Positions 16,601-57,773 of a DNA stretch of 64,000 nucleotides are shown piece by piece. A program made the translations under genes and the position numbers. Origin of the DNA: Anisakis pegreffii (taxonomy: Eukaryota; Nematoda; Chromadorea; Rhabditida; Anisakidae); NCBI GenBank assembly GCA_035041965.1, contig JAPYMA010000536.1, forward strand, positions 58,935 through 122,934. Direction: 5' to 3'. The stretch's first letter is position 1, and every line of letters begins with the position of its first letter. Under the pieces are notes generated by a model, which saw nothing but the letters and a program-made list of their open reading frames with translations, ran no database searches and was not told the DNA's origin.

Positions 16601-19600
16601 GTAACGATATGAAGAATACTATTAAAAAATCGTACCAATTTGTGAGTCAGCCACATGAACTGTATGACGATCACATAAAGGTGAATACGGTAAACCCATA
16701 CTAAACTCCAAATCGCCCTGTCTAAAGAATTCCTCCAAAACGCCTTCAGTCCATCGTGAATGCAAATTCCACGGTTTCGATGCATGTGATATATCGCATG
16801 CATGCACTATTAGACATAACGCCTTGTTTTTGTCGATTCTGAAATTTGATTTAATTTGTGCGCAATAATTACTCATTACTCATTATTTCCTCTATCCTTC
16901 CATAAAGTATGACAGTTCAAAATGAATTTGTTTCAGATCAAATTAAAATAAAAGTGAGGTCAGTATGTAGAATGACTGAAATGAATGAATAAACATTCAA
17001 CTATTTAACTCACCCTTCTGGCAGAGAGAGCATATTTTTCATTGTTTTAATTTGAACGAAATGTGTCGACATATCGGTTGCGAGGACTATTTCGATTACC
17101 ATGTTGCGTAATTCTCTTAAAACTTATTCACTGATTGCTTGAATTCTCTCACTTTTGAATATTCAACTCAAATTTGATTATATTTACAAAAAAAGCGAAT
17201 AAAAATGCGCTGAAATAATTGCAGCAACCAATCACTTAAAGTAGCCTATACAAAAAGCTAGAATTGAGTGATTTTTTCTAAATCTGAAACTCGCAATTAT
17301 ACATTCACAACTTAATAGCCAATGATAATAACAGTATGTATACTGATTATGTTGATGTACCAGTGATACTAGCATAATAGCTATCACATCAGTTAAAATA
17401 ATTTACTAGTTATGTATGAATAAGTGTATGCATTTAAGAATAGTTTCTAACAATATATGGGATAATCTATTTATGAAAGAATTCACACCTGTACTCTTCC
17501 TTTGTAAGTCTTTCCAAAATATTCCTGTCCCCATCCTTCAACAGTCTAAAACATGCGCTTACGTGGTGATTCTCAAGAACACTTCTATCGTTATAGAGCA
17601 TTGCAAAATTAGATCTGCAAAGTGATCATTTCCAATTATTATTACCGATACAATCATCAAATTGCTCGTATGACACCGCTATGAGGATGATAACATTTTT
17701 GAGTCGTAGACATCAAAGAAACTCGAATTTGATTGGATGAGTTTAATTACCCAATGGAAAACTTCTTTGCGCTATGATTCTGGCAATCTGAGCAGAATTG
17801 TCATCACTACCAATAGATAATGCCATTTTGTTGGTATTTTTTTATCAATAATGCACTCAACCCAAACATCCGTTTAACTCTGATAATATCATCCTTGCTG
17901 GCATTATCATTGTTATCATCAGAGTTATTATTTTATCATTATTAATATTAACTCCAATCCAGTTGGCACAATTATTAATATTCCTTCCGGTATCATAATA
18001 ATGATGGTCGTTATCGATATCATTGCTGATTAATGACTATTTTTATCAATAATTCGGAACCTACCCAGACTGTATGTGAAAGTTATTGGTGTGCCCAGTA
18101 TGTTCATAATCATGTATAAGTGCTCCGAATATTACTGCCAATAAATCCAAATCGGTTAAACTGCTCTGAAAATTCAACAAACGCAATTTCTCATCATATC
18201 TAAGCTATCGTTCAACAATACCATCACCCATTCATGTGATTATAACAATTAATGCATTTGTTTTAGGCAGAAATATGAATATAATTTTGGAACAATATTT
18301 TATGGTAATAATGAAGTTAGCATTTGTTATCGGAATAAAATAATAAATCTATAAATCGCCACCGAAACTAAAAAGGTGAGAAAAAGGTAAAGGTAAAAAA
18401 GGTGATATCGTAAGAAAAAAGGTAAAAAAGTAAAAACCGCGAGTCCAGTTTGTGACAGCATAAAATGCGACGATTGTGTAACGTCTGCAGCATGCACAAT
18501 GTTGTGATATGGATTATTATGCTTACTGTAACCAGCTTCCAATGCCAATAGATAATTTTCGAGTGTTTGATACGGTATCTGAAAACAGCATTAAATATCA
18601 CTTATAATAGAGGCAATAACAATAATGATAATAATAATAACAATAATAATATTATTAACAATAACAATGACAATAAAACAGATGAATTAATAATGTTCCG
18701 AAAATTATGATTATGTAAATTTTATTGTATATTGTATATTACGTTCAGAATAAATGAATGCAGACAGGTCCAACTATGTGAAGAATGATTACGATACACA
18801 ATTAAGGCAATTTGCAGTTTCAGGATGAGATATTTTATGAGCGAATCAATAAATCACCTTAAACCGTTCAAGAAAGCCATATCGATTGAACAGTTCAAAT
18901 CCGACATATTTCAGCGCATGACCGTCCGAGACTTCGTTCACTTTGAACGGATCGAACGACCAACTGTCCACGTTCTGAATAATATTGTTTTGATCATTTT
19001 TGCTTTTTTGTCAGCATCTTTGCTGTTATTATTATAGTCAATGCTGATCTAATCAGTTGACATTGCGCTCTCAGCACAATAATCGACAGTATCAACTCAA
19101 AAAAGCACCAAAAGGATCGCAATCAATGAAAAGCAAACCCGCATCAACGCAGCAATCTCAGGTGGAATCGGTGCAAAAACAGCTTGTGATTTTCGAAACA
19201 TTCTGAAAATATCACTCATAAATTGTTATTGTCATAATCATTATCATCACCGTTTTGTTCATCATTATTATCACTGTTGTTAACATTAATCACCGTTTTC
19301 AATGATAATGTTGAATCCGGTATCATATATCAGCGATAACATTACCAGTTAACTTTATCAGTTAAAGTATGGTGCCGAAGGTATCAATGAATGATGTCGA
19401 AATGCTTCAGATCTAAAAGAATAACAAAAATGTGAAATTGCTAAATGAAAAATGCTCACTTATCAAAGAAGATTCCGGTTCGGATCGCATTCGCGACAGA
19501 CTTGAATTTGGGTTTTTCGCGTTTCGACGGAACATTCTGACGAGTGAAAGTGGCTGCAAGCCACTCTCGTACCTCATCCGGCACACTCTCTGAAGTCACC

Positions 19601-42200: not shown

Positions 42201-45200
42201 TTAAATTCTGGGTCGTTCAGATTGCGCAAGAACCAAAGAACACCCGGTCGTAGCACTTCACGGAGTACAAGTATGAAGGATGCCGAATAGAAGACATAGA
42301 CCATTCCGATTAACCAATGTAAAAAGAGCGATGAAGTTGGTGAATTTGAGAACGATTGAATACGACGTGGCAGTGTAGAGGCAAATAATCGCTGTAATTT
42401 TATTATCTCATTCGTTGACGATTCCCAACGACAACAACGAGTGCCTTCATCATGCAATCCGCAATCATGCTTCATAGAATACATCACGATCAATCAGTTA
42501 CTACTAACGTACATCACATTTGGTTTGAGGAGCACATCGATAGATTATTATTACTATTATTTCAATGTTTATGAAATCCAATTACGGAGTAAATTCTTTC
42601 AATCAAACAAAACTCTTCTATTCTTTATTATCGAATGACAAAAACAATTTGTCTAAATTTTGAAACAATTTTCCAAAAAAAAAACATTTTTCACTCCCCA
42701 AACAAAAAGAGCAAACAATGAACTAACCAACGAGCAGATGTCCAACCACCAACCACAGATAATTGGGAAAAAACCAAGTTCGATCAGAACCAATAAAAAT
42801 ACCTTTACAACCAAATAGCACATACCCAATAGACGATACATTCTAAAACGTAATTCCGTATCAACGGCCAGTCATTACGAATAACTTCTTTGGCAAAAAT
42901 AAACACGAAAAAAAGATTCGCTACCAAACTGATGTGATACGAATGGATAACTAGATAAACGACACCTCAAATTGAAAATCAATAAGGTTGAATATAAAAC
43001 GGATAATGACAAAGAAGTGAACAATAGGACTAGGACCGAGATCTTAGTTATTACCATCACCATAAAAAATAACAATAATATTATCAAACGGAAAACGAAC
43101 GATGCAAAATGGAAAACTCTCGCGACCACATGTAGAACGCGCATAATGATGCATATGAGGACGTAACCAACTACGACTGATGTCAACGTCGGGAAATAAT
43201 GAATACGTGGTGCTAATCCAATTGATTTCAGCAAGGAATAGCCGAGTTGGTAGGGTGAAAAGGCTGCAAAAAATGAACATATCCAAATTGAAAACAACTC
43301 AATTCTAGACCAGGAAACAATCGATTAATCCGACACAATGTCACTTTGGTGGTGATCAAATCATCAACTCAAATTTGGTTTATAATTTACGAACGCAAGC
43401 GATGGCTACAAATTAGAAGCATCTAGATCAGCCATTTCTAGCCATCTGTTCAATTTATGCAAGACTGCACGAACCACTCATGTGAACTCCTCTTCGCATA
43501 CCTAAACTCTATATTTCGCCACCGATTTCAACGTGATTTTGAAATGTTGAAACATAAATTGAAAACTTCAAAAACTAACCAAAGAGTACCGTGAATAGAG
43601 TGTTCAGAGCGATCACCCAGAAGACATGCTCCAGAAATTGTAGTGATCCATCTAAACCCAACAATCTCTGCCATGTTAACTCATCACCGACCCGATCCCA
43701 GTCTCTCCAGTTATCACCCTCAACCTCTTCACCCTCCACTTCACCGCCTTCCACTTCGGCTCTCTCCTGACCCTCCAGTTCGTCGCCGAATAGCTGCATT
43801 ACTCGTGCACGCTCACCCCCTCCACCCCTTCCAACCCCCTCGCCACCGCCAAACCCTAATCCTACACCACCGTTTACCACTCTCAGATCACCCTCTCGAT
43901 TTTCACCCTCAACCTCTTCACCCTCCACTTCACCACCTTCATTGCCTTCCAGTTCGGCTCTCTCCTGACCTTCCAGTTCGTCGCCAAATATCTGGATTGC
44001 CCGTGCACCCCCACCTCCTCGCCCTCCACCTCTCCCAAACCCCCTGCCACCACCACCACCAAACCCTAATCCTACACCACCGTTTACCAACCTCAGTCCA
44101 CCAATCTCTCGATTTTCTGCATCGCGCTAAAATATACTCATCAAAATTATACATCACGAATAATCCAAAACAGTGCATTTCAAATCCATCACACAATCTA
44201 TGTAATCTTGGCATCATACCTGATTATCGTTATTGTTGATATCGTTGTTCTGCCCCGCACCGTTCAAAAGCAACCAGTCTTGTGGACCTCCGTGTAGGAT
44301 CTGTTCGCGAAGCCAAATCAGCGAAATGAATGCACACAAAAACACTGCCACTAAGAAACAACCCTGAATTTTTCAACAACTCTATTAATAAATGCACAAG
44401 CTTTTCTTACACTCATATTGTTGACCAAAATGAGAAAGCAATTCTACTCTATGAAAATATTTCTTTCCCTCGGAAAATTTCTGAAAATCTCTTCTAAGAA
44501 CTTGATATTTGTCACCAAACTGACATTCTCAATCATCAACCAGAATTATTTCTTACAAAATTTCAACAACTTTTTGTCTAGCGCACTTCAGAATATCACT
44601 CACCACTAAGTGGAATACACAAAAAAAACGAAATGAAATGGAAAAAACAATGAAAACGAAACGCATCACAACCTTCAGACAATCGGTAACAATATTTTCC
44701 AGTGAAAACAACTGGAATGGTAAAGCGAGAAGATTGGCGACGTTAGCTGAGAATACCATCCGATAGACACGACATGCGGTTAACGGTACGAAACCTACCC
44801 ACGCCACTAACACCAACGTATATACAGACCATGTACGTAACATACGACCCACATCTATCAAAATTCCTGAAGATTTTCATTTTTAAACGCATCTCTTCTG
44901 AAACCATCTCTAACAAACACCACTGCAGTAGACTTGCAACATTTTTTCCCATTCTTTCTTGCTTTTTCATATATCTTTATTTATTCGTAGTACCATGGTT
45001 AATACACCTAACTAGTGGCGTAACTAAAGTCGATAGTCAAGTCACTGGCTGTGCACATTTGTAGACGATATTCGCCATCATTAGGAAGAGATTCACTATC
45101 ATTAAGAGAAGGGAGATGCTCTGTAAAACTGCACGATATTCGACGGCGAACGATATCAAAAAGACAATAATGTGAGCCGCAATCTGCTTGCTCGCAACGA

Positions 45201-45922: not shown

Positions 45923-47243
45923 TTTGTCTTGTTTCTTTCTTTTTTTATTTTTATTTTCGATTTATGAATATGATGAAAATTATCTACTTGAAACCCTTCG
46001 TGCAACTCTTGAAGAAGAGCGCCTGAAAGTCCAACTAAAAGAAACGATAACTAAATTCAACTAAATTCAGGACGATCGTTTAGGATGGATGATACATCTG
46101 AACAGATTTGCGTTTATGTGAGACGTTGTCAACGATTATAATCAAACTCAACAAGTTCCACGCTGACACATACTTCAATTGGATAAGAAAATTTCCACTG
46201 AAACGCCTATGCACCTGTCGCCACAGACACAACAACAAAAAAGATGCGATGAAAATCAGTCGACACAAATTATATTTGAAAAATTATAGCAGCAATCTTA
46301 TCAGCAAGTCCACGTTATCAAAGCAAGCAACCAGTTTTTACGTCTTAGACTGATGCTGAGCAGTTCGTTCGCCAATCCTTTGGGCGATTGGAAAAAATAC
46401 GGATTGTTATTATGACCATTCACCGCACTGCTGTCGGTTGTGCTGAATTATTCAGGACGACGAAGATTCATTATTTTTTGGCTATGGGGTGGATAAATTG
46501 CCGATCTCAATACATCAATTTAATTATATTAATTGAAATCAATATCTAGTGAAATCGATCCGGAAAAACTGTTAGTTTATTGCTATCGATTGTTGTTAAC
46601 ATCAACTCCGGCAGATCACTGGATTCCGAACATGTTCCCTCGATCCATCGGAGTGTACTTCAAGCTTTTCTACCCAGACATCATCGCATAATGTAGGAGA
46701 GTAGCCCTTCTACATCGCTATGATCGCCAAATCAAAATCGAAATAAGAATTTCTTTAAAAAAAAGGATAATTCTCTGCGCTATTATTGTTAGCTGTGAAA
46801 CGATGTGGAAAGACGGCTGTCAAGAAAGCAGGAACGTGATATTGGTGATCAGATAGAGAGGCGTAAACCAGTGAAGAGTTGTAACTGCGTATTTAAAAAA
46901 TTTTAAAAATCATAGCATGCGTGCTGAAGTCGTATGAAAATCTCTTGAGGATTCGTAGTTGAGATTATCAATCTGATTAATATTTCTTGACCAGATTCAA
47001 GAAAACATCAAGATTTCAAATGAAGAATCCTACATCATCAACCCGTAAAAATTAATCAAAACTCAATAATTTATTCATTGTCGATCATGAGACAACAAAG
47101 CTGAAGAATCGCTGAACTCGCAAGAATGCCTGACAATACTCCGTGGTTGAATTGCCACATGATGCAACGGTAAAATTTAACGCGATACAACCGATCGCTC
47201 TTAAAGAACGATTGTAAATCGCACTTAGATGCTTATCTAAACA
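45923..47243. other. Divergent gap between MARCHF6 and the satellite
   Basis: About 1.3 kb upstream of the MARCHF6 start. It should carry that promoter. I looked here for the missing 5-prime tweety exons on the plus strand and did not find a first membrane segment. A stretch around 46580-46720 has more balanced composition and short open frames on both strands, without a family match. Confidence 0.45.
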
Positions 47244-50200
47244 GGATCGGCGATCGCGATTCGACAGGTCGGCGATCGGCCGTCGAATCGATTCGACGGA
47301 TCGGCGATCGCGATTCTACAGGTGGGCGATCGGCCGTCGAATCGATTCGACGGATCGGCGATCGCGATTCGACAGGTCGGCGATCGGCCGTCGAATCGAT
47401 TCGACGGATCGGCGATCGCGATTCGACAGGTCGGCGATCGGCCGTCGAATCGATTCGACGGATCGGCGATCGCGATTCGACAGGTCGGCGATCGGCCGTC
47501 GAATCGATTCGACGGATCGGCGATCGCGATTCGACAGGTCGGCGATCGGCCGTCGAATCGATTCGACGGATCGGCGATCGCGATTCGACAGGTCGGCGAT
47601 CGGCCGTCGAATCGATTCGACGGATCGGCGATCGCGATTCGACAGGTCGGCGATCGGCCGTCGAATCGATTCGACGGATCGGCGATCGCGATTCGACAGG
47701 TCGGCGATCGGCCGTCGAATCGATTCGACGGATCGGCGATCGCGATTCGACAGGTCGGCGATCGGCCGTCGAATCGATTCGACGGATCGGCGATCGCGAT
47801 TCGACAGGTCGGCGATCGGCCGTCGAATCGATTCGACGGATCGGCGATCGCGATTCGACAGGTCGGCGATCGGCCGTCGAATCGATTCGACGGATCGGCG
47901 ATCGCGATTCGACAGGTCGGCGATCGGCCGTCGAATCGATTCGACGGATCGGCGATCGCGATTCGACAGGTCGGCGATCGGCCGTCGAATCGATTCGACG
48001 GATCGGCGATCGCGATTCGACAGGTCGGCGATCGGCCGTCGAATCGATTCGACGGATCGGCGATCGCGATTCGACAGGTCGGCGATCGGCCGTCGAATCG
48101 ATTCGACGGATCGGCGATCGCGATTCGACAGGTCGGCGATCGGCCGTCGAATCGATTCGACGGATCGGCGATCGCGATTCGACAGGTCGGCGATCGGCCG
48201 TCGAATCGATTCGACGGATCGGCGATCGCGATTCGACAGGTCGGCGATCGGCCGTCGAATCGATTCGACGGATCGGCGATCGCGATTCGACAGGTCGGCG
48301 ATCGGCCGTCGAATCGATTCGACGGATCGGCGATCGCGATTCGACAGGTCGGCGATCGGCCGTCGAATCGATTCGACGGATCGGCGATCGCGATTCGACA
48401 GGTCGGCGATCGGCCGTCGAATCGATTCGACGGATCGGCGATCGCGATTCGACAGGTCGGCGATCGGCCGTCGAATCGATTCGACGGATCGGCGATCGCG
48501 ATTCGACAGGTCGGCGATCGGCCGTCGAATCGATTCGACGGATCGGCGATCGCGATTCGACAGGTCGGCGATCGGCCGTCGAATCGATTCGACGGATCGG
48601 CGATCGCGATTCGACAGGTCGGCGATCGGCCGTCGAATCGATTCGACGGATCGGCGATCGCGATTCGACAGGTCGGCGATCGGCCGTCGAATCGATTCGA
48701 CGGATCGGCGATCGCGATTCGACAGGTCGGCGATCGGCCGTCGAATCGATTCGACGGATCGGCGATCGCGATTCGACAGGTCGGCGATCGGCCGTCGAAT
48801 CGATTCGACGGATCGGCGATCGCGATTCGACAGGTCGGCGATCGGCCGTCGAATCGATTCGACGGATCGGCGATCGCGATTCGACAGGTCGGCGATCGGC
48901 CGTCGAATCGATTCGACGGATCGGCGATCGCGATTCGACAGGTCGGCGATCGGCCGTCGAATCGATTCGACGGATCGGCGATCGCGATTCGACAGGTCGG
49001 CGATCGGCCGTCGAATCGATTCGACGGATCGGCGATCGCGATTCGACAGGTCGGCGATCGGCCGTCGAATCGATTCGACGGATCGGCGATCGCGATTCGA
49101 CAGGTCGGCGATCGGCCGTCGAATCGATTCGACGGATCGGCGATCGCGATTCGACAGGTCGGCGATCGGCCGTCGAATCGATTCGACGGATCGGCGATCG
49201 CGATTCGACAGGTCGGCGATCGGCCGTCGAATCGATTCGACGGATCGGCGATCGCGATTCGACAGGTCGGCGATCGGCCGTCGAATCGATTCGACGGATC
49301 GGCGATCGCGATTCGACAGGTCGGCGATCGGCCGTCGAATCGATTCGACGGATCGGCGATCGCGATTCGACAGGTCGGCGATCGGCCGTCGAATCGATTC
49401 GACGGATCGGCGATCGCGATTCGACAGGTCGGCGATCGGCCGTCGAATCGATTCGACGGATCGGCGATCGCGATTCGACAGGTCGGCGATCGGCCGTCGA
49501 ATCGATTCGACGGATCGGCGATCGCGATTCGACAGGTCGGCGATCGGCCGTCGAATCGATTCGACGGATCGGCGATCGCGATTCGACAGGTCGGCGATCG
49601 GCCGTCGAATCGATTCGACGGATCGGCGATCGCGATTCGACAGGTCGGCGATCGGCCGTCGAATCGATTCGACGGATCGGCGATCGCGATTCGACAGGTC
49701 GGCGATCGGCCGTCGAATCGATTCGACGGATCGGCGATCGCGATTCGACAGGTCGGCGATCGGCCGTCGAATCGATTCGACGGATCGGCGATCGCGATTC
49801 GACAGGTCGGCGATCGGCCGTCGAATCGATTCGACGGATCGGCGATCGCGATTCGACAGGTCGGCGATCGGCCGTCGAATCGATTCGACGGATCGGCGAT
49901 CGCGATTCGACAGGTCGGCGATCGGCCGTCGAATCGATTCGACGGATCGGCGATCGCGATTCGACAGGTCGGCGATCGGCCGTCGAATCGATTCGACGGA
50001 TCGGCGATCGCGATTCGACAGGTCGGCGATCGGCCGTCGAATCGATTCGACGGATCGGCGATCGCGATTCGACAGGTCGGCGATCGGCCGTCGAATCGAT
50101 TCGACGGATCGGCGATCGCGATTCGACAGGTCGGCGATCGGCCGTCGAATCGATTCGACGGATCGGCGATCGCGATTCGACAGGTCGGCGATCGGCCGTC

Positions 50201-53200
50201 GAATCGATTCGACGGATCGGCGATCGCGATTCGACAGGTCGGCGATCGGCCGTCGAATCGATTCGACGGATCGGCGATCGCGATTCGACAGGTCGGCGAT
50301 CGGCCGTCGAATCGATTCGACGGATCGGCGATCGCGATTCGACAGGTCGGCGATCGGCCGTCGAATCGATTCGACGGATCGGCGATCGCGATTCGACAGG
50401 TCGGCGATCGGCCGTCGAATCGATTCGACGGATCGGCGATCGCGATTCGACAGGTCGGCGATCGGCCGTCGAATCGATTCGACGGATCGGCGATCGCGAT
50501 TCGACAGGTCGGCGATCGGCCGTCGAATCGATTCGACGGATCGGCGATCGCGATTCGACAGGTCGGCGATCGGCCGTCGAATCGATTCGACGGATCGGCG
50601 ATCGCGATTCGACAGGTCGGCGATCGGCCGTCGAATCGATTCGACGGATCGGCGATCGCGATTCGACAGGTCGGCGATCGGCCGTCGAATCGATTCGACG
50701 GATCGGCGATCGCGATTCGACAGGTCGGCGATCGGCCGTCGAATCGATTCGACGGATCGGCGATCGCGATTCGACAGGTCGGCGATCGGCCGTCGAATCG
50801 ATTCGACGGATCGGCGATCGCGATTCGACAGGTCGGCGATCGGCCGTCGAATCGATTCGACGGATCGGCGATCGCGATTCGACAGGTCGGCGATCGGCCG
50901 TCGAATCGATTCGACGGATCGGCGATCGCGATTCGACAGGTCGGCGATCGGCCGTCGAATCGATTCGACGGATCGGCGATCGCGATTCGACAGGTCGGCG
51001 ATCGGCCGTCGAATCGATTCGACGGATCGGCGATCGCGATTCGACAGGTCGGCGATCGGCCGTCGAATCGATTCGACGGATCGGCGATCGCGATTCGACA
51101 GGTCGGCGATCGGCCGTCGAATCGATTCGACGGATCGGCGATCGCGATTCGACAGGTCGGCGATCGGCCGTCGAATCGATTCGACGGATCGGCGATCGCG
51201 ATTCGACAGGTCGGCGATCGGCCGTCGAATCGATTCGACGGATCGGCGATCGCGATTCGACAGGTCGGCGATCGGCCGTCGAATCGATTCGACGGATCGG
51301 CGATCGCGATTCGACAGGTCGGCGATCGGCCGTCGAATCGATTCGACGGATCGGCGATCGCGATTCGACAGGTCGGCGATCGGCCGTCGAATCGATTCGA
51401 CGGATCGGCGATCGCGATTCGACAGGTCGGCGATCGGCCGTCGAATCGATTCGACGGATCGGCGATCGCGATTCGACAGGTCGGCGATCGGCCGTCGAAT
51501 CGATTCGACGGATCGGCGATCGCGATTCGACAGGTCGGCGATCGGCCGTCGAATCGATTCGACGGATCGGCGATCGCGATTCGACAGGTCGGCGATCGGC
51601 CGTCGAATCGATTCGACGGATCGGCGATCGCGATTCGACAGGTCGGCGATCGGCCGTCGAATCGATTCGACGGATCGGCGATCGCGATTCGACAGGTCGG
51701 CGATCGGCCGTCGAATCGATTCGACGGATCGGCGATCGCGATTCGACAGGTCGGCGATCGGCCGTCGAATCGATTCGACGGATCGGCGATCGCGATTCGA
51801 CAGGTCGGCGATCGGCCGTCGAATCGATTCGACGGATCGGCGATCGCGATTCGACAGGTCGGCGATCGGCCGTCGAATCGATTCGACGGATCGGCGATCG
51901 CGATTCGACAGGTCGGCGATCGGCCGTCGAATCGATTCGACGGATCGGCGATCGCGATTCGACAGGTCGGCGATCGGCCGTCGAATCGATTCGACGGATC
52001 GGCGATCGCGATTCGACAGGTCGGCGATCGGCCGTCGAATCGATTCGACGGATCGGCGATCGCGATTCGACAGGTCGGCGATCGGCCGTCGAATCGATTC
52101 GACGGATCGGCGATCGCGATTCGACAGGTCGGCGATCGGCCGTCGAATCGATTCGACGGATCGGCGATCGCGATTCGACAGGTCGGCGATCGGCCGTCGA
52201 ATCGATTCGACGGATCGGCGATCGCGATTCGACAGGTCGGCGATCGGCCGTCGAATCGATTCGACGGATCGGCGATCGCGATTCGACAGGTCGGCGATCG
52301 GCCGTCGAATCGATTCGACGGATCGGCGATCGCGATTCGACAGGTCGGCGATCGGCCGTCGAATCGATTCGACGGATCGGCGATCGCGATTCGACAGGTC
52401 GGCGATCGGCCGTCGAATCGATTCGACGGATCGGCGATCGCGATTCGACAGGTCGGCGATCGGCCGTCGAATCGATTCGACGGATCGGCGATCGCGATTC
52501 GACAGGTCGGCGATCGGCCGTCGAATCGATTCGACGGATCGGCGATCGCGATTCGACAGGTCGGCGATCGGCCGTCGAATCGATTCGACGGATCGGCGAT
52601 CGCGATTCGACAGGTCGGCGATCGGCCGTCGAATCGATTCGACGGATCGGCGATCGCGATTCGACAGGTCGGCGATCGGCCGTCGAATCGATTCGACGGA
52701 TCGGCGATCGCGATTCGACAGGTCGGCGATCGGCCGTCGAATCGATTCGACGGATCGGCGATCGCGATTCGACAGGTCGGCGATCGGCCGTCGAATCGAT
52801 TCGACGGATCGGCGATCGCGATTCGACAGGTCGGCGATCGGCCGTCGAATCGATTCGACGGATCGGCGATCGCGATTCGACAGGTCGGCGATCGGCCGTC
52901 GAATCGATTCGACGGATCGGCGATCGCGATTCGACAGGTCGGCGATCGGCCGTCGAATCGATTCGACGGATCGGCGATCGCGATTCGACAGGTCGGCGAT
53001 CGGCCGTCGAGATCGATTCGACGGATCGGCGATCGCGATTCGACAGGTCGGCGATCGGCCGTCGAATCGATTCGACGGATCGGCGATCGCGATTCGACAG
53101 GTCGGCGATCGGCCGTCGAATCGATTCGACGGATCGGCGATCGCGATTCGACAGGTCGGCGATCGGCCGTCGAATCGATTCGACGGATCGGCGATCGCGA

Positions 53201-55092
53201 TTCGACAGGTCGGCGATCGGCCGTCGAATCGATTCGACGGATCGGCGATCGCGATTCGACAGGTCGGCGATCGGCCGTCGAATCGATTCGACGGATCGGC
53301 GATCGCGATTCGACAGGTCGGCGATCGGCCGTCGTCGAATCGATTCGACGGATCGGCGATCGCGATTCGACAGGTCGGCGATCGGCCGTCGAATCGATTC
53401 GACGGATCGGCGATCGCGATTCGACAGGTCGGCGATCGGCCGTCGAATCGATTCGACGGATCGGCGATCGCGATTCGACAGGTCGGCGATCGGCCGTCGA
53501 ATCGATTCGACGGATCGGCGATCGCGATTCGACAGGTCGGCGATCGGCCGTCGAATCGATTCGACGGATCGGCGATCGCGATTCGACAGGTCGGCGATCG
53601 GCCGTCGAATCGATTCGACGGATCGGCGATCGCGATTCGACAGGTCGGCGATCGGCCGTCGAATCGATTCGACGGATCGGCGATCGGCGATTCGATTCGA
53701 CGGTCGGCGATCGGCCGTCGAATCGATTCGACGGATCGGCGATCGCGATTCGACAGGTCGGCGATCGGCCGTCGAATCGATTCGACGGATCGGCGATCGC
53801 GATTCGACAGGTCGGCGATCGGCCGTCGAATCGATTCGACGGATCGGCGATCGCGATTCGACAGGTCGGCGATCGGCCGTCGAATCGATTCGACGGATCG
53901 GCGATCGCGATTCGACAGGTCGGCGATCGGCCGTCGAATCGATTCGACGGATCGGCGATCGCGATTCGACAGGTCGGCGATCGGCCGTCGAATCGATTCG
54001 ACGGATCGGCGATCGCGATTCGACAGGTCGGCGATCGGCCGTCGAATCGATTCGACGGATCGGCGATCGCGATTCGACAGGTCGGCGATCGGCCGTCGAA
54101 TCGATTCGACGGATCGGCGATCGCGATTCGACAGGTCGGCGATCGGCCGTCGAATCGATTCGACGGATCGGCGATCGCGATTCGACAGGTCGGCGATCGG
54201 CCGTCGAATCGATTCGACGGATCGGCGATCGCGATTCGACAGGTCGGCGATCGGCCGTCGAATCGATTCGACGGATCGGCGATCGCGATTCGACAGGTCG
54301 GCGATCGGCCGTCGAATCGATTCGACGGATCGGCGATCGGCCGATTCGACGAGGTCGGCGATCGGCCGTCGAATCGATTCGACGGATCGGCGATCGCGAT
54401 TCGACAGGTCGGCGATCGGCCGTCGAATCGATTCGACGGATCGGCGATCGCGATTCGACAGGTCGGCGATCGGCCGTCGAATCGATTCGACGGATCGGCG
54501 ATCGGCCGTCGAATCGATTCGACGGATCGGCGATCGCGATTCGACAGGTCGGCGATCGGCCGTCGAATCGATTCGACGGATCGGCGATCGCGATTCGACA
54601 GGTCGGCGATCGGCCGTCGAATCGATTCGACGGATCGGCGATCGCGATTCGACAGGTCGGCGATCGGCCGTCGAATCGATTCGACGGATCGGCGATCGCG
54701 ATTCGACAGGTCGGCGATCGGCCGTCGAATCGATTCGACGGATCGGCGATCGCGATTCGACAGGTCGGCGATCGGCCGTCGAATCGATTCGACGGATCGG
54801 CGATCGCGATTCGACAGGTCGGCGATCGGCCGTCGAATCGATTCGACGGATCGGCGATCGCGATTCGACAGGTCGGCGATCGGCCGTCGAATCGATTCGA
54901 CGGATCGGCGATCGCGATTCGACAGGTCGGCGATCGGCCGTCGAATCGATTCGACGGATCGGCGATCGCGATTCGACTGGTCGGCGATCGGCCGTCGAAT
55001 CTATTCGACGGATCGGCGATCGCGATTCGACAGGTCGGCGATCGGCCGTCGAATCGATTCGACGGATCGGCGATCGCGATTCGGCGGATCGG
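47244..55092. repeat. 54-bp satellite array, about 145 tandem copies
   Basis: A 7.85-kb array of a 54-bp unit, 63% GC with 13 CpG per unit, in an AT-rich region. The unit is composite: half A (22 bp, starts GATTCGACGGATCGGCGATC), half A-prime (22 bp, 19 of 22 identical) and CCGTCGAATC, the reverse complement of the first ten bases of half A. Where units meet, this gives a perfect 20-bp palindrome. The unit has no stop codon in any frame, so two overlapping false frames of about 2600 codons cross the array on opposite strands (18-residue repeats). Copies from about 47340 to 53010 look identical. Edge copies diverge (47315, 47323, 54978, 55000, 55083). Irregular copies: one-base insertion near 53011, three-base near 53335, rearranged unit near 53690, three-base gain near 54340, and a 32-bp unit near 54500 lacking 22 bp. 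Confidence 0.97.
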
Positions 55093-55151
55093 TAGACTGA
55101 GGTGTTGTTTGTATGTATTGTATAGTAGATCTATCTGTGTGTGTATTTTAG

Positions 55152-57773
55152 CTTTTGCCTTGGATTTTGCCTTTTCGGTAATGAACACTTGAATCGTGCG
55201 GTGACGGCCTCAATCAATGGTATTGATGACGTGGCCAGAAATTTCAAATTGGCCGTTGCTCAGGTTTGTTGTGTTTGATTTGTTGGGATTTAATTTGACT
55301 TGTTGGGATTTAATTAAAATGTGTACGTGTGGCCAGAGATAACTGATTTATTTGGTCATGCACGGAATTGCAATTGCTTTTATTATTGTTATTTTTTGAT
55401 TTTCATTATTATTATTGTTATTGATGTTAATATTACAGTGCAATAATTTGAATGATACCCGTCTGAATGCATCGAAACACGTCGACTCACTATCAGCGAG
55501 CATTCGGAAAGAGGCCGATAAGTCGCCGAGTATTAATAAAACGGTAATGAGCACTTTTTTGGTTTGGTTGTAATTTTTATAATTGATGTGTATTGCAGTT
55601 ATTAAACGAAGCCGAGGCGGTCATCACAGCGCTCAATGAAAAGATCGATGAAGTTGGTGTAGATCTATCGCAAGTGAAGTCGGTGCTCTCCGGTGTGACT
55701 TTTTTGGAACAGGTTAAGATCTACTCGGAACGCATTGAGTTGGAAAGGTCATTTATTATTATTGTTATGATTATTATTATTATTATTGTTATTGTTAATG
55801 TAGTATTACATAATAATAGATAGAAAGTTTAATGCAGTAAGTAATCTAAACGAAATTACAGATGGATTTTGTGTGTGACTCTTCTGTCGATAATGCTAAT
55901 CGTGCTGTTCGCCGGGGTGATAGCGTTTTGTCGTCAATCGAAGAAAGGAGCGGTGGTGTTCTCGGGTTTAGGTTTTGCCATATTCATTGTGGGTTGGATG
56001 CTGTTGGCGGTTATTTTACCAGCAACAGTGGTGAGGAGTTTTGGTGATTGATTGTGTTCGTGATAGCAGTGGCAGCAGCATGTATGTGATGATGATGATG
56101 ATTGCAGTCGTTGTCGGATTTTTGCATGGACGGTGATCATTTCATTGGAAGTCATCTGAGCAACGAAACAATCGAAACGTTAAAATTCTATCGAAAGTGC
56201 GATCCGAAACCAACGCACGACAACGTTCCATCAACACTCGCAGTGAATCAGATCAGTGAACAACTCTCCAAAATTCAAGACATCCAGCAAACCTTAAACA
56301 CCTATATCCATAAGCTGTTCAACGAGAGTGCTGAGGTAATAATTAAATAACGCTGATAAGATGAAGAACAACAAATGTGCAGTGCAGCTTAAGCCTACAA
56401 TATCCTTAGACGAACGAATATTTTTGAAAACTCAGAAGATTCATGATGCATTCAGGCTCAGAGAGAGTAAAGAAAGGAAAACGATAAACTAAGATTGCAG
56501 CTCACCAACGGTACACGTTTAGTGGACGATGATATCAAGCGTTCGCTGAGAGGAATCGGAGCACTGGAAACAACAGTGGCATGTTATGCGTATCACGGCG
56601 ACGTGAACGTGATGCAGAATGGAGTGTGCAACAATGCAGTGTAAGTAGATGATCAAGCTTAATCAATGCACTGATCTATCTGATCTGATCTTTATTTAGC
56701 TCTCTCCAAAACTCTGAGCATCATTGCTTAAAATTGTATCATTTAAAAACCGTTTTGAAATTAATAGATGTTTGAAGGATGTGATTACGTTATGGTTTTG
56801 CGGTCGGACGTGATTTTTTTAAATTTGAAATTTTGTCATTTGATTGAATTTATTGATGCGAATTCAGGATTGGGGCAGCGATACTAACATTTTGTTTGTT
56901 CTTATTGGGCGCGTTCATGTTCGCTCTTTTACTGATCGTTTCAAAATCGTGGCATCTATTCACCAGACTGTATGTTCTTTTATTTGTTTTGTTATTTTTT
57001 GTGTTTTTATTATTATTATTATGAATGTTATTGTAAATGTTGTTATTATTTTAAAAAAATGTTTATTGTTCGGTAGCGGTTTTGCAGACCGTCAGATTAC
57101 GTTGAAGTAGATGACGAAGATCCGTTTTTCCCTCGCGCCAACGACAGCACCATACCGGTAGATATATATGGAACGCATGTATATAATCCACGAACGAGAT
57201 TTGCAAATTCATTGTAAGTGACGACGACATATTTTAATCTAGAAGATTATTCTAGCTATGCTCATGAAATTGGTCATTGCAGGGATCGAACCGAACCATC
57301 AACAAACACCACGAGTGTGACTGCACAGGCAGCGTTGATGCCGAATGGAACGCCGCAAGCGAACAACTCGAATTCGTTGGTACCTCTGCTGGACGGCGGC
57401 AACGAGCCGACTAGTAGCACCCCATGGCATCGCAGTTCGGCCAGCAGTGGCGGCGCTCCAACCCCGTTGCAGGCCCAGCAGCATCACCTCAGCTCACCAC
57501 TCTCGGGCAATGCACCACCTGCGGTACGAACGAACAGGTCTACTTGCACTCTAGATGAATAATCAACTCAGCTCAATCTCATCTCTAATGATTCCCTTTC
57601 CCTTCGCTTGCCGTCGTGTTTTTCCAGTGAACATTCATTTATTATTTGTGAGTGCTGATTAAAAATTAAAAATGACTGATTTCAGTATGATGCGTTCAAG
57701 TTACCCGACGAACTGCGATGAGAGCAGTAATGCGTATCGTTATCGTAACTATCATGAGCAGTTCGATGTGTGA
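55152..57773 (+). CDS. ttyh-1: Tweety-family anion channel (5-prime part missing)
   Basis: Plasma-membrane protein of the tweety family, described as volume- or calcium-regulated chloride channels. Exons 55152-55263, 55439-55543, 55599-55747, 55862-56030, 56108-56335, 56501-56640, 56868-56969, 57088-57213, 57283-57537 and 57686-57773 join in phase to about 490 residues. Seen: end of membrane segment 2 (FCLGFCLFGNEHLN), extracellular helices with cysteine CNNLNDTRLNAS, segments 3 and 4 (WILCVTLLSIMLIVLFAGVI cut, then GWMLLAVILPATV), the family block LSDFCMDGD with the following KFYRKC, LRGIGALETTVACY, segment 5 (GAAILTFCLFLLGAFMFALL), then a cytosolic Ser/Pro/Gln-rich tail ending YRYRNYHEQFDV. 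The first visible exon needs two bases from an upstream exon, which should encode segment 1. That exon was not found; the satellite lies directly upstream, so this first intron either spans the array or the gene is broken or misassembled. Confidence 0.9.

What the first reader, a model, noticed from the sequence alone, without database searches (positions are those of the whole stretch)
47244..55092. Composite, palindromic, six-frame-open 54-bp satellite
The unit decomposes into a 22-bp element, a second 22-bp copy with 3 differences, and an inverted copy of the first 10 bases. This gives every unit a 20-bp perfect palindrome plus a GCGATCGC palindrome, 13 CpGs, and no stop codon in any frame. 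Such a unit could form cruciforms or hairpins, attract CpG methylation or bind a dimeric protein, and is compositionally alien to its surroundings. Satellites with palindromes are known at centromeres and heterochromatin; this particular unit I do not recognise.
Basis: partly seen in the sequence, partly recalled or inferred. Interest (0 to 1): 0.75.

Follow-up and report, generated by a model that had tools for sequence, protein, structure and literature searches.

The report
Palindromic minisatellite inside a nematode intron
The 54-base repeat is real, but it belongs to a small minisatellite family found in introns of several ordinary genes of an Anisakis-like roundworm, and the contig around it was probably joined wrongly through the repeat, so it is a modest find and not a new centromere satellite.

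Summary
The array is real. The genome is a nematode's: SL1 genes are present, and the nearest proteins are from Toxocara and Anisakis. Related repeats were found at eight places, about 15 kb of 122.7 Mb.

Three of the eight places are introns, shown by orthologues that read straight across: a tweety homologue (this array), a TBC1D12/14-type gene and a PF07801 gene. Tweety is split between contig C863, which ends inside the array, and the window right of the array. The left flank therefore probably belongs to a second array whose other side is contig C1124. A 143-bp segment found only beside those two array edges supports this.

Likely history: a 32-bp hairpin-forming unit, a 22-bp internal duplication giving 54 bp, then homogenisation. 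CpG methylation is unlikely, as only a DNMT2-like gene was found. A palindromic intronic minisatellite is known in C. elegans (CeRep25B), so this is a new member of a known kind. No reads were available.

The parts
47244..55092 (+). 54-bp palindromic minisatellite array, 146 pieces, 138 of them exact units
47352..52967 (+). run of 104 identical 54-bp units; the presumed wrong join between two array loci would lie in or near this run (inference)
52968..55092 (+). right part of the array with the irregular pieces (55, 57, 59, 57, 32 bp and one 54-mer with two changes); assigned to the tweety intron
55093..55151 (+). last 59 bp of the tweety intron up to the 3' splice site (ends TATTTTAG)
   Evidence: frame and orthologue continuity
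55152..55263 (+). tweety-homologue (TTYH) exon that continues the reading frame of C863:18119-18288
55439..56335 (+). further TTYH exons (55439-55543, 55599-55747, 55862-56030, 56108-56335)
47101..47243 (+). 143-bp segment directly left of the array; the only other copy found in the genome (89%) lies near the array edge of C1124
45159..45434 (-). open frame with a RING-variant domain (PF12906; MARCH type by recall), a coding piece on the left flank

Best explanation
A small palindromic minisatellite family of an ascaridoid (Anisakis-like) nematode, with arrays in introns at three or more of its eight known places. Shown: units of 32, 33 and 35 bp built on the same palindrome occur as short arrays, and a 54-bp form occurs at five places (C393, C1124, two on C863, C341). 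The 32-bp unit is one 22-bp element plus an inverted copy of its first ten bases. In C341 the 54-bp consensus is that unit with the 22-bp element doubled, the two copies differing by one base; the window's unit carries two more changes. The window's array lies in an intron of a tweety-homologue gene. Inferred: hairpins at the palindromes promote slippage and unequal exchange, which expanded and homogenised the arrays; no function is shown and the intron is spliced out around them. Also inferred: contig C393 was joined through the array, so there are two long arrays. Array A is C863 - array - window right side (the tweety intron). Array B is window left side - array - C1124.
For: A C863 exon plus five C393 exons give one frame that aligns with T. 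canis tweety, 247 of 309 identical, 0 gaps, across the join. The Pfam Tweety score is 70.2 bits for the C393 part and 91.9 with the C863 exon added. In the genome the T. canis protein gives 8 matches: 1 on C863 (from residue 35) and 7 on C393 right of the array (residues 89-440), none elsewhere. C863 ends inside the array at 19003 and C1124 at 27264. The 143-bp segment has 2 copies, beside the two array edges assigned to array B. Other introns: TBC1D12/14-type and PF07801-type. Unit history. Folding.
Against: No reads were available, so copy number and the wrong join are not tested directly. The C863 exon alone reaches no Pfam family, and residues 1-34 and 441-536 of T. canis tweety were not matched. 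Five of the eight places are not shown to be introns, one of them only by a likely splice acceptor. Repeat searches are lower bounds by the tool's own note and their listings were cut. The slippage mechanism is inferred from structure alone.
Confidence: 0.8

Rival explanations
1. The contig is right: a real exchange between two arrays (fixed or on one haplotype) has moved the 3' part of tweety next to the RING-variant gene.
For: C393 is assembled as one piece; C393 and C1124 share the identical 54-mer, which would allow an exchange.
Against: Tweety would be broken, and the only matches found for it fit C863 plus C393-right. Both other contigs end inside the array, a usual sign of an unresolved repeat.
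Confidence: 0.1
2. A centromeric or heterochromatic satellite whose bulk is missing from the assembly.
For: Two contigs end inside the array, so true lengths are unknown; the units are highly uniform.
Against: Only about 15 kb at eight places in the assembly; three places are introns.
Confidence: 0.06
3. The repeats are carried and spread by a mobile element such as a Helitron.
For: Dispersed loci; a 52-bp piece of a high-copy repeat lies at the C1124 edge; Helitrons are said to have spread some C. elegans satellites (PMC4595182, passages).
Against: The two tweety flanks gave only short secondary matches, mostly simple repeats (in one search only 40 of 378 candidates were scored). The 52-bp piece belongs to a longer repeat, and the four other copies fetched (L033-L036, about 3 kb each) hold no 14-mer of the 54-bp unit.
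Confidence: 0.1
4. The array affects splicing or expression of the host gene through repeated RNA hairpins.
For: Strong predicted hairpins in the intron transcript; CeRep25B, an intronic palindromic minisatellite, is enriched near multiple alternative splicing decisions in C. elegans (PMC4039745, passages).
Against: Nothing tested here shows an effect; conservation of the array in relatives was not tested, and unit sizes differ between loci.
Confidence: 0.06

Closest known systems
CeRep25B minisatellite of C. elegans (PMC4039745, passages seen)
   Same: Short palindromic or nearly palindromic unit in tandem, 75% reported in introns, nematode
   Different: 24-base unit with AGCAGAC and GGTCTGC, neither of which occurs in this unit on either strand; concentrated on chromosomes III and II there
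Cele_Fam_1_35 and other palindrome-bearing Caenorhabditis satellite families (PMC4595182, passages seen)
   Same: Short units with palindromes, dispersed arrays; palindromes proposed there to favour expansion
   Different: 213 members for Cele_Fam_1_35 against eight places found here; a sequence comparison was not run
Satellite-like repeats carried by Helentrons in the Pacific oyster (PMC7492417, search listing only)
   Same: Short dispersed arrays
   Different: No shared mobile-element ends were found beside the arrays here, though not all flanks were aligned

Membership tests
Palindromic intronic minisatellite (general kind) | Tandem array of units of tens of bp | tested here: met
Palindromic intronic minisatellite (general kind) | Unit contains an inverted repeat or palindrome | tested here: met
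Palindromic intronic minisatellite (general kind) | Arrays inside introns | tested here: met
   3 of 8 places by orthologue continuity, including this array; C780 only by a likely splice acceptor; C341, C1124/C393-left and C874 and no others shown or excluded
CeRep25B | Motifs of the CeRep25B unit (AGCAGAC, GGTCTGC; PMC4039745) | tested here: not met
   absent from the unit on both strands
Centromeric or heterochromatic satellite | High abundance in the genome | tested here: not met
   254 palindrome cores and about 15 kb in the assembly; raw reads not available, so collapsed copies are not excluded
Centromeric or heterochromatic satellite | CENP-A or heterochromatin marks | not testable with these tools
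   no chromatin data
CpG-methylated repeat | A DNMT1/DNMT3-type methylase and CpG depletion | tested here: not met
   1 DNA_methylase match, DNMT2-like; CpG o/e 1.10 in the rest of the window; an exon-by-exon search could miss a split gene
Helitron-borne satellite | Shared mobile-element ends beside the arrays | tested here: inconclusive
   no systematic alignment of the flanks of all loci

The most novel reading that the evidence does not exclude
The join in C393 is real: a hairpin-rich minisatellite acts as a site of exchange between two loci in this worm, so that some chromosomes carry tweety broken in its array intron and joined to the RING-variant locus.
Probability: 0.08. Interest if true: 0.5.

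Novelty: new member of a known kind. Interest (0 to 1): 0.22.

Why it matters
It gives a case in which steps of minisatellite growth can be read from sister loci: a 32-bp unit, a 22-bp internal duplication to 54 bp, two more changes, then homogenisation. It also warns that a gene-bearing contig can be joined wrongly through such an array, and shows that the tweety gene of this assembly is spread over two contigs.

Tried and rejected
Coding reading rejected: pieces of 55, 59 and 32 bp shift the frame, and openness is common in shuffles (2372 of 5000 dinucleotide shuffles). Contamination: no match in plasmids or phages (162 bases, distant mode), nor of exact 24-base patterns in GTDB contigs or IMG/VR. 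RNA family: no match at the gathering score of any of 4227 Rfam families in the window. CpG methylation: one DNA_methylase match, DNMT2-like. Spread by a mobile element: no shared long flanks seen, not closed. The C695 array as query reached C780; the C780 array as query reached only C695 besides itself, so the family fades out there. One of the 254 palindrome cores was not located: 253 lie in the held loci. Papers: no description of this unit was seen in the listings; these cover open papers only, the listings were partial, and the letters of the unit were not searched.

Full report
Observation. The array spans 47244-55092 and splits into 146 pieces, 138 of them exact 54-mers, with one run of 104 identical units. 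Each unit is two 22-bp elements with three differences plus an inverted copy of the first ten bases. It holds a 20-bp palindrome, GCGATCGC and 13 CpGs, at 63% GC against 35% in the rest of the window. The six-frame openness is not special: 2372 of 5000 dinucleotide-preserving shuffles of the unit share it. The palindrome is rarer: 55 of 5000 dinucleotide shuffles and 0 of 5000 mononucleotide shuffles reach 20 bp.

Organism. The genome (122.7 Mb, 1740 contigs) has nematode SL1 genes: 24 of 31 listed matches pass the family cut-off. The tweety protein is 80% identical to Toxocara canis. A PF07801 protein (the name DUF1647 is recalled) is 93% identical over 86% of the query to Anisakis simplex. 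I take it as an anisakid or near relative; no call names the species.

Extent of the family. Blast searches of the genome with three array pieces give eight places: C393 (the window), C1124, two on C863, C341, C695, C780 and C874. The tool calls such counts lower bounds, and the listings were cut, although 9 of 9 and 8 of 8 first-look candidates were scored. With array ends partly read by eye they add up to about 15 kb, 0.012% of the assembly. The palindrome core occurs 254 times and 253 of these lie in the held loci. Unit sizes differ: 54 bp in C393 and C1124, 54 and 32 bp mixed in both C863 arrays, 54 bp but only 76% alike in C341, 33 bp in C695, 35 bp in C780.

Where the arrays sit. On C863 a tweety exon (18119-18288) ends 87 bp before the array, which runs to the contig end at 19003. 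In the window the next tweety exon starts at 55152, 59 bp after the array. The exons form one open frame that aligns with T. canis tweety at 247 of 309 positions identical, with no gap at the join, and matches tweety structures in the PDB (best E 4.1e-10). The Pfam Tweety score is 70.2 bits for the C393 part and 91.9 bits with the C863 exon; the C863 exon alone reaches no family. A genome search with the T. canis protein gave 8 matches: one on C863, from residue 35, whose alignment runs on past the exon through stop codons, and seven on C393 right of the array, residues 89-440; residues 1-34 and 441-536 were not matched. A second array on C863 fills 493 bp of a 619-bp intron of a TBC1D12/14-type gene, where the T. 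canis orthologue reads SLSGFLGDLLKPP straight across. The C695 array lies in a 375-bp intron at a point where the Parascaris orthologue reads straight through and where the deposited A. simplex model ends. The C341 array starts 643 bp after the end of an open frame downstream of a LEM-domain exon. The C780 array ends about 80 bp before a likely splice acceptor. C874 was not placed.

The contig is probably chimeric. There are two left flanks (C863 and the window's left side) and two right flanks (the window's right side and C1124, reversed), with the array in one polarity. Tweety pairs C863 with the window's right side. That leaves the window's left side with C1124, and these two share a 143-bp segment (89%) with no third copy found (2 of 2 candidates scored). 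On C1124 a 52-bp piece of a high-copy repeat lies between that segment and the array. Both C863 and C1124 end inside the array. On the window's left side an open frame on the minus strand holds a RING-variant domain; on C1124 two of three tested open frames hold Cadherin_3 domains. I have no reads, so a true rearrangement cannot be excluded.

How it likely arose and works. The 32-bp unit is one 22-bp element plus the inverted ten bases, so it can form a hairpin. In the C341 consensus the two 22-bp elements differ by one base; in the window's unit by three, two of them at sites where C341 has none. This suggests the order: 32-bp unit, a 22-bp internal duplication, two changes, then homogenisation in C393, C863 and C1124. 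Irregular pieces gather at the edges assigned to array A, as expected from unequal exchange. The edges assigned to array B are more uniform: unit 2 of the window is changed, and on C1124 90 of 93 pieces are exact, one is a variant and two are end pieces, as if it were younger. The left edge of array A opens with an 18-bp perfect inverted repeat. Three units fold better than 200 of 200 shuffles as DNA and as RNA. Slippage at hairpins is my inference. No function is shown.

Methylation. CpG is not depleted (o/e 1.10 in the rest of the window). The only DNA_methylase match is closest to DNMT2 structures. A CpG-methylated repeat is therefore unlikely, with the caveat of an exon-by-exon search.

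Known kinds. CeRep25B of C. elegans is a palindromic minisatellite, 75% of it in introns and enriched near multiple alternative splicing decisions (PMC4039745, passages). Caenorhabditis satellite families often carry palindromes, proposed there to favour expansion (PMC4595182, passages). The present family shares the design of CeRep25B and lacks its motifs.

Noticed in passing
L014 4876-9000 (C341:128876-133000, end of the fetched stretch): A 62-bp/247-bp AT-rich tandem repeat starts beside the C341 copy of the 54-bp array; it covers more of the fetched stretch than that array does.
   Followed up: no
L050 505-600 (C780): A perfect 29-bp tandem repeat (3.3 copies) lies about 180 bp before the 35-bp palindromic array.
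   Followed up: no
C1124:22259-22311: A 52-bp piece of a repeat with at least 38 other places in the genome sits at the array edge, like filler DNA (40 of 182 candidates scored).
   Followed up: partly
L013 8376-8414 (C863:18376-18414): An 18-bp perfect inverted repeat with a 3-bp loop opens the tweety array, as if the array began with a fold-back copy.
   Followed up: partly
C14, C181, C1485: SL1 genes come in tandem units of about 552 bp (C14, C181) and 559 bp (C1485).
   Followed up: no
43714-44117: Two copies of a 198-bp C-rich repeat in the window.
   Followed up: no
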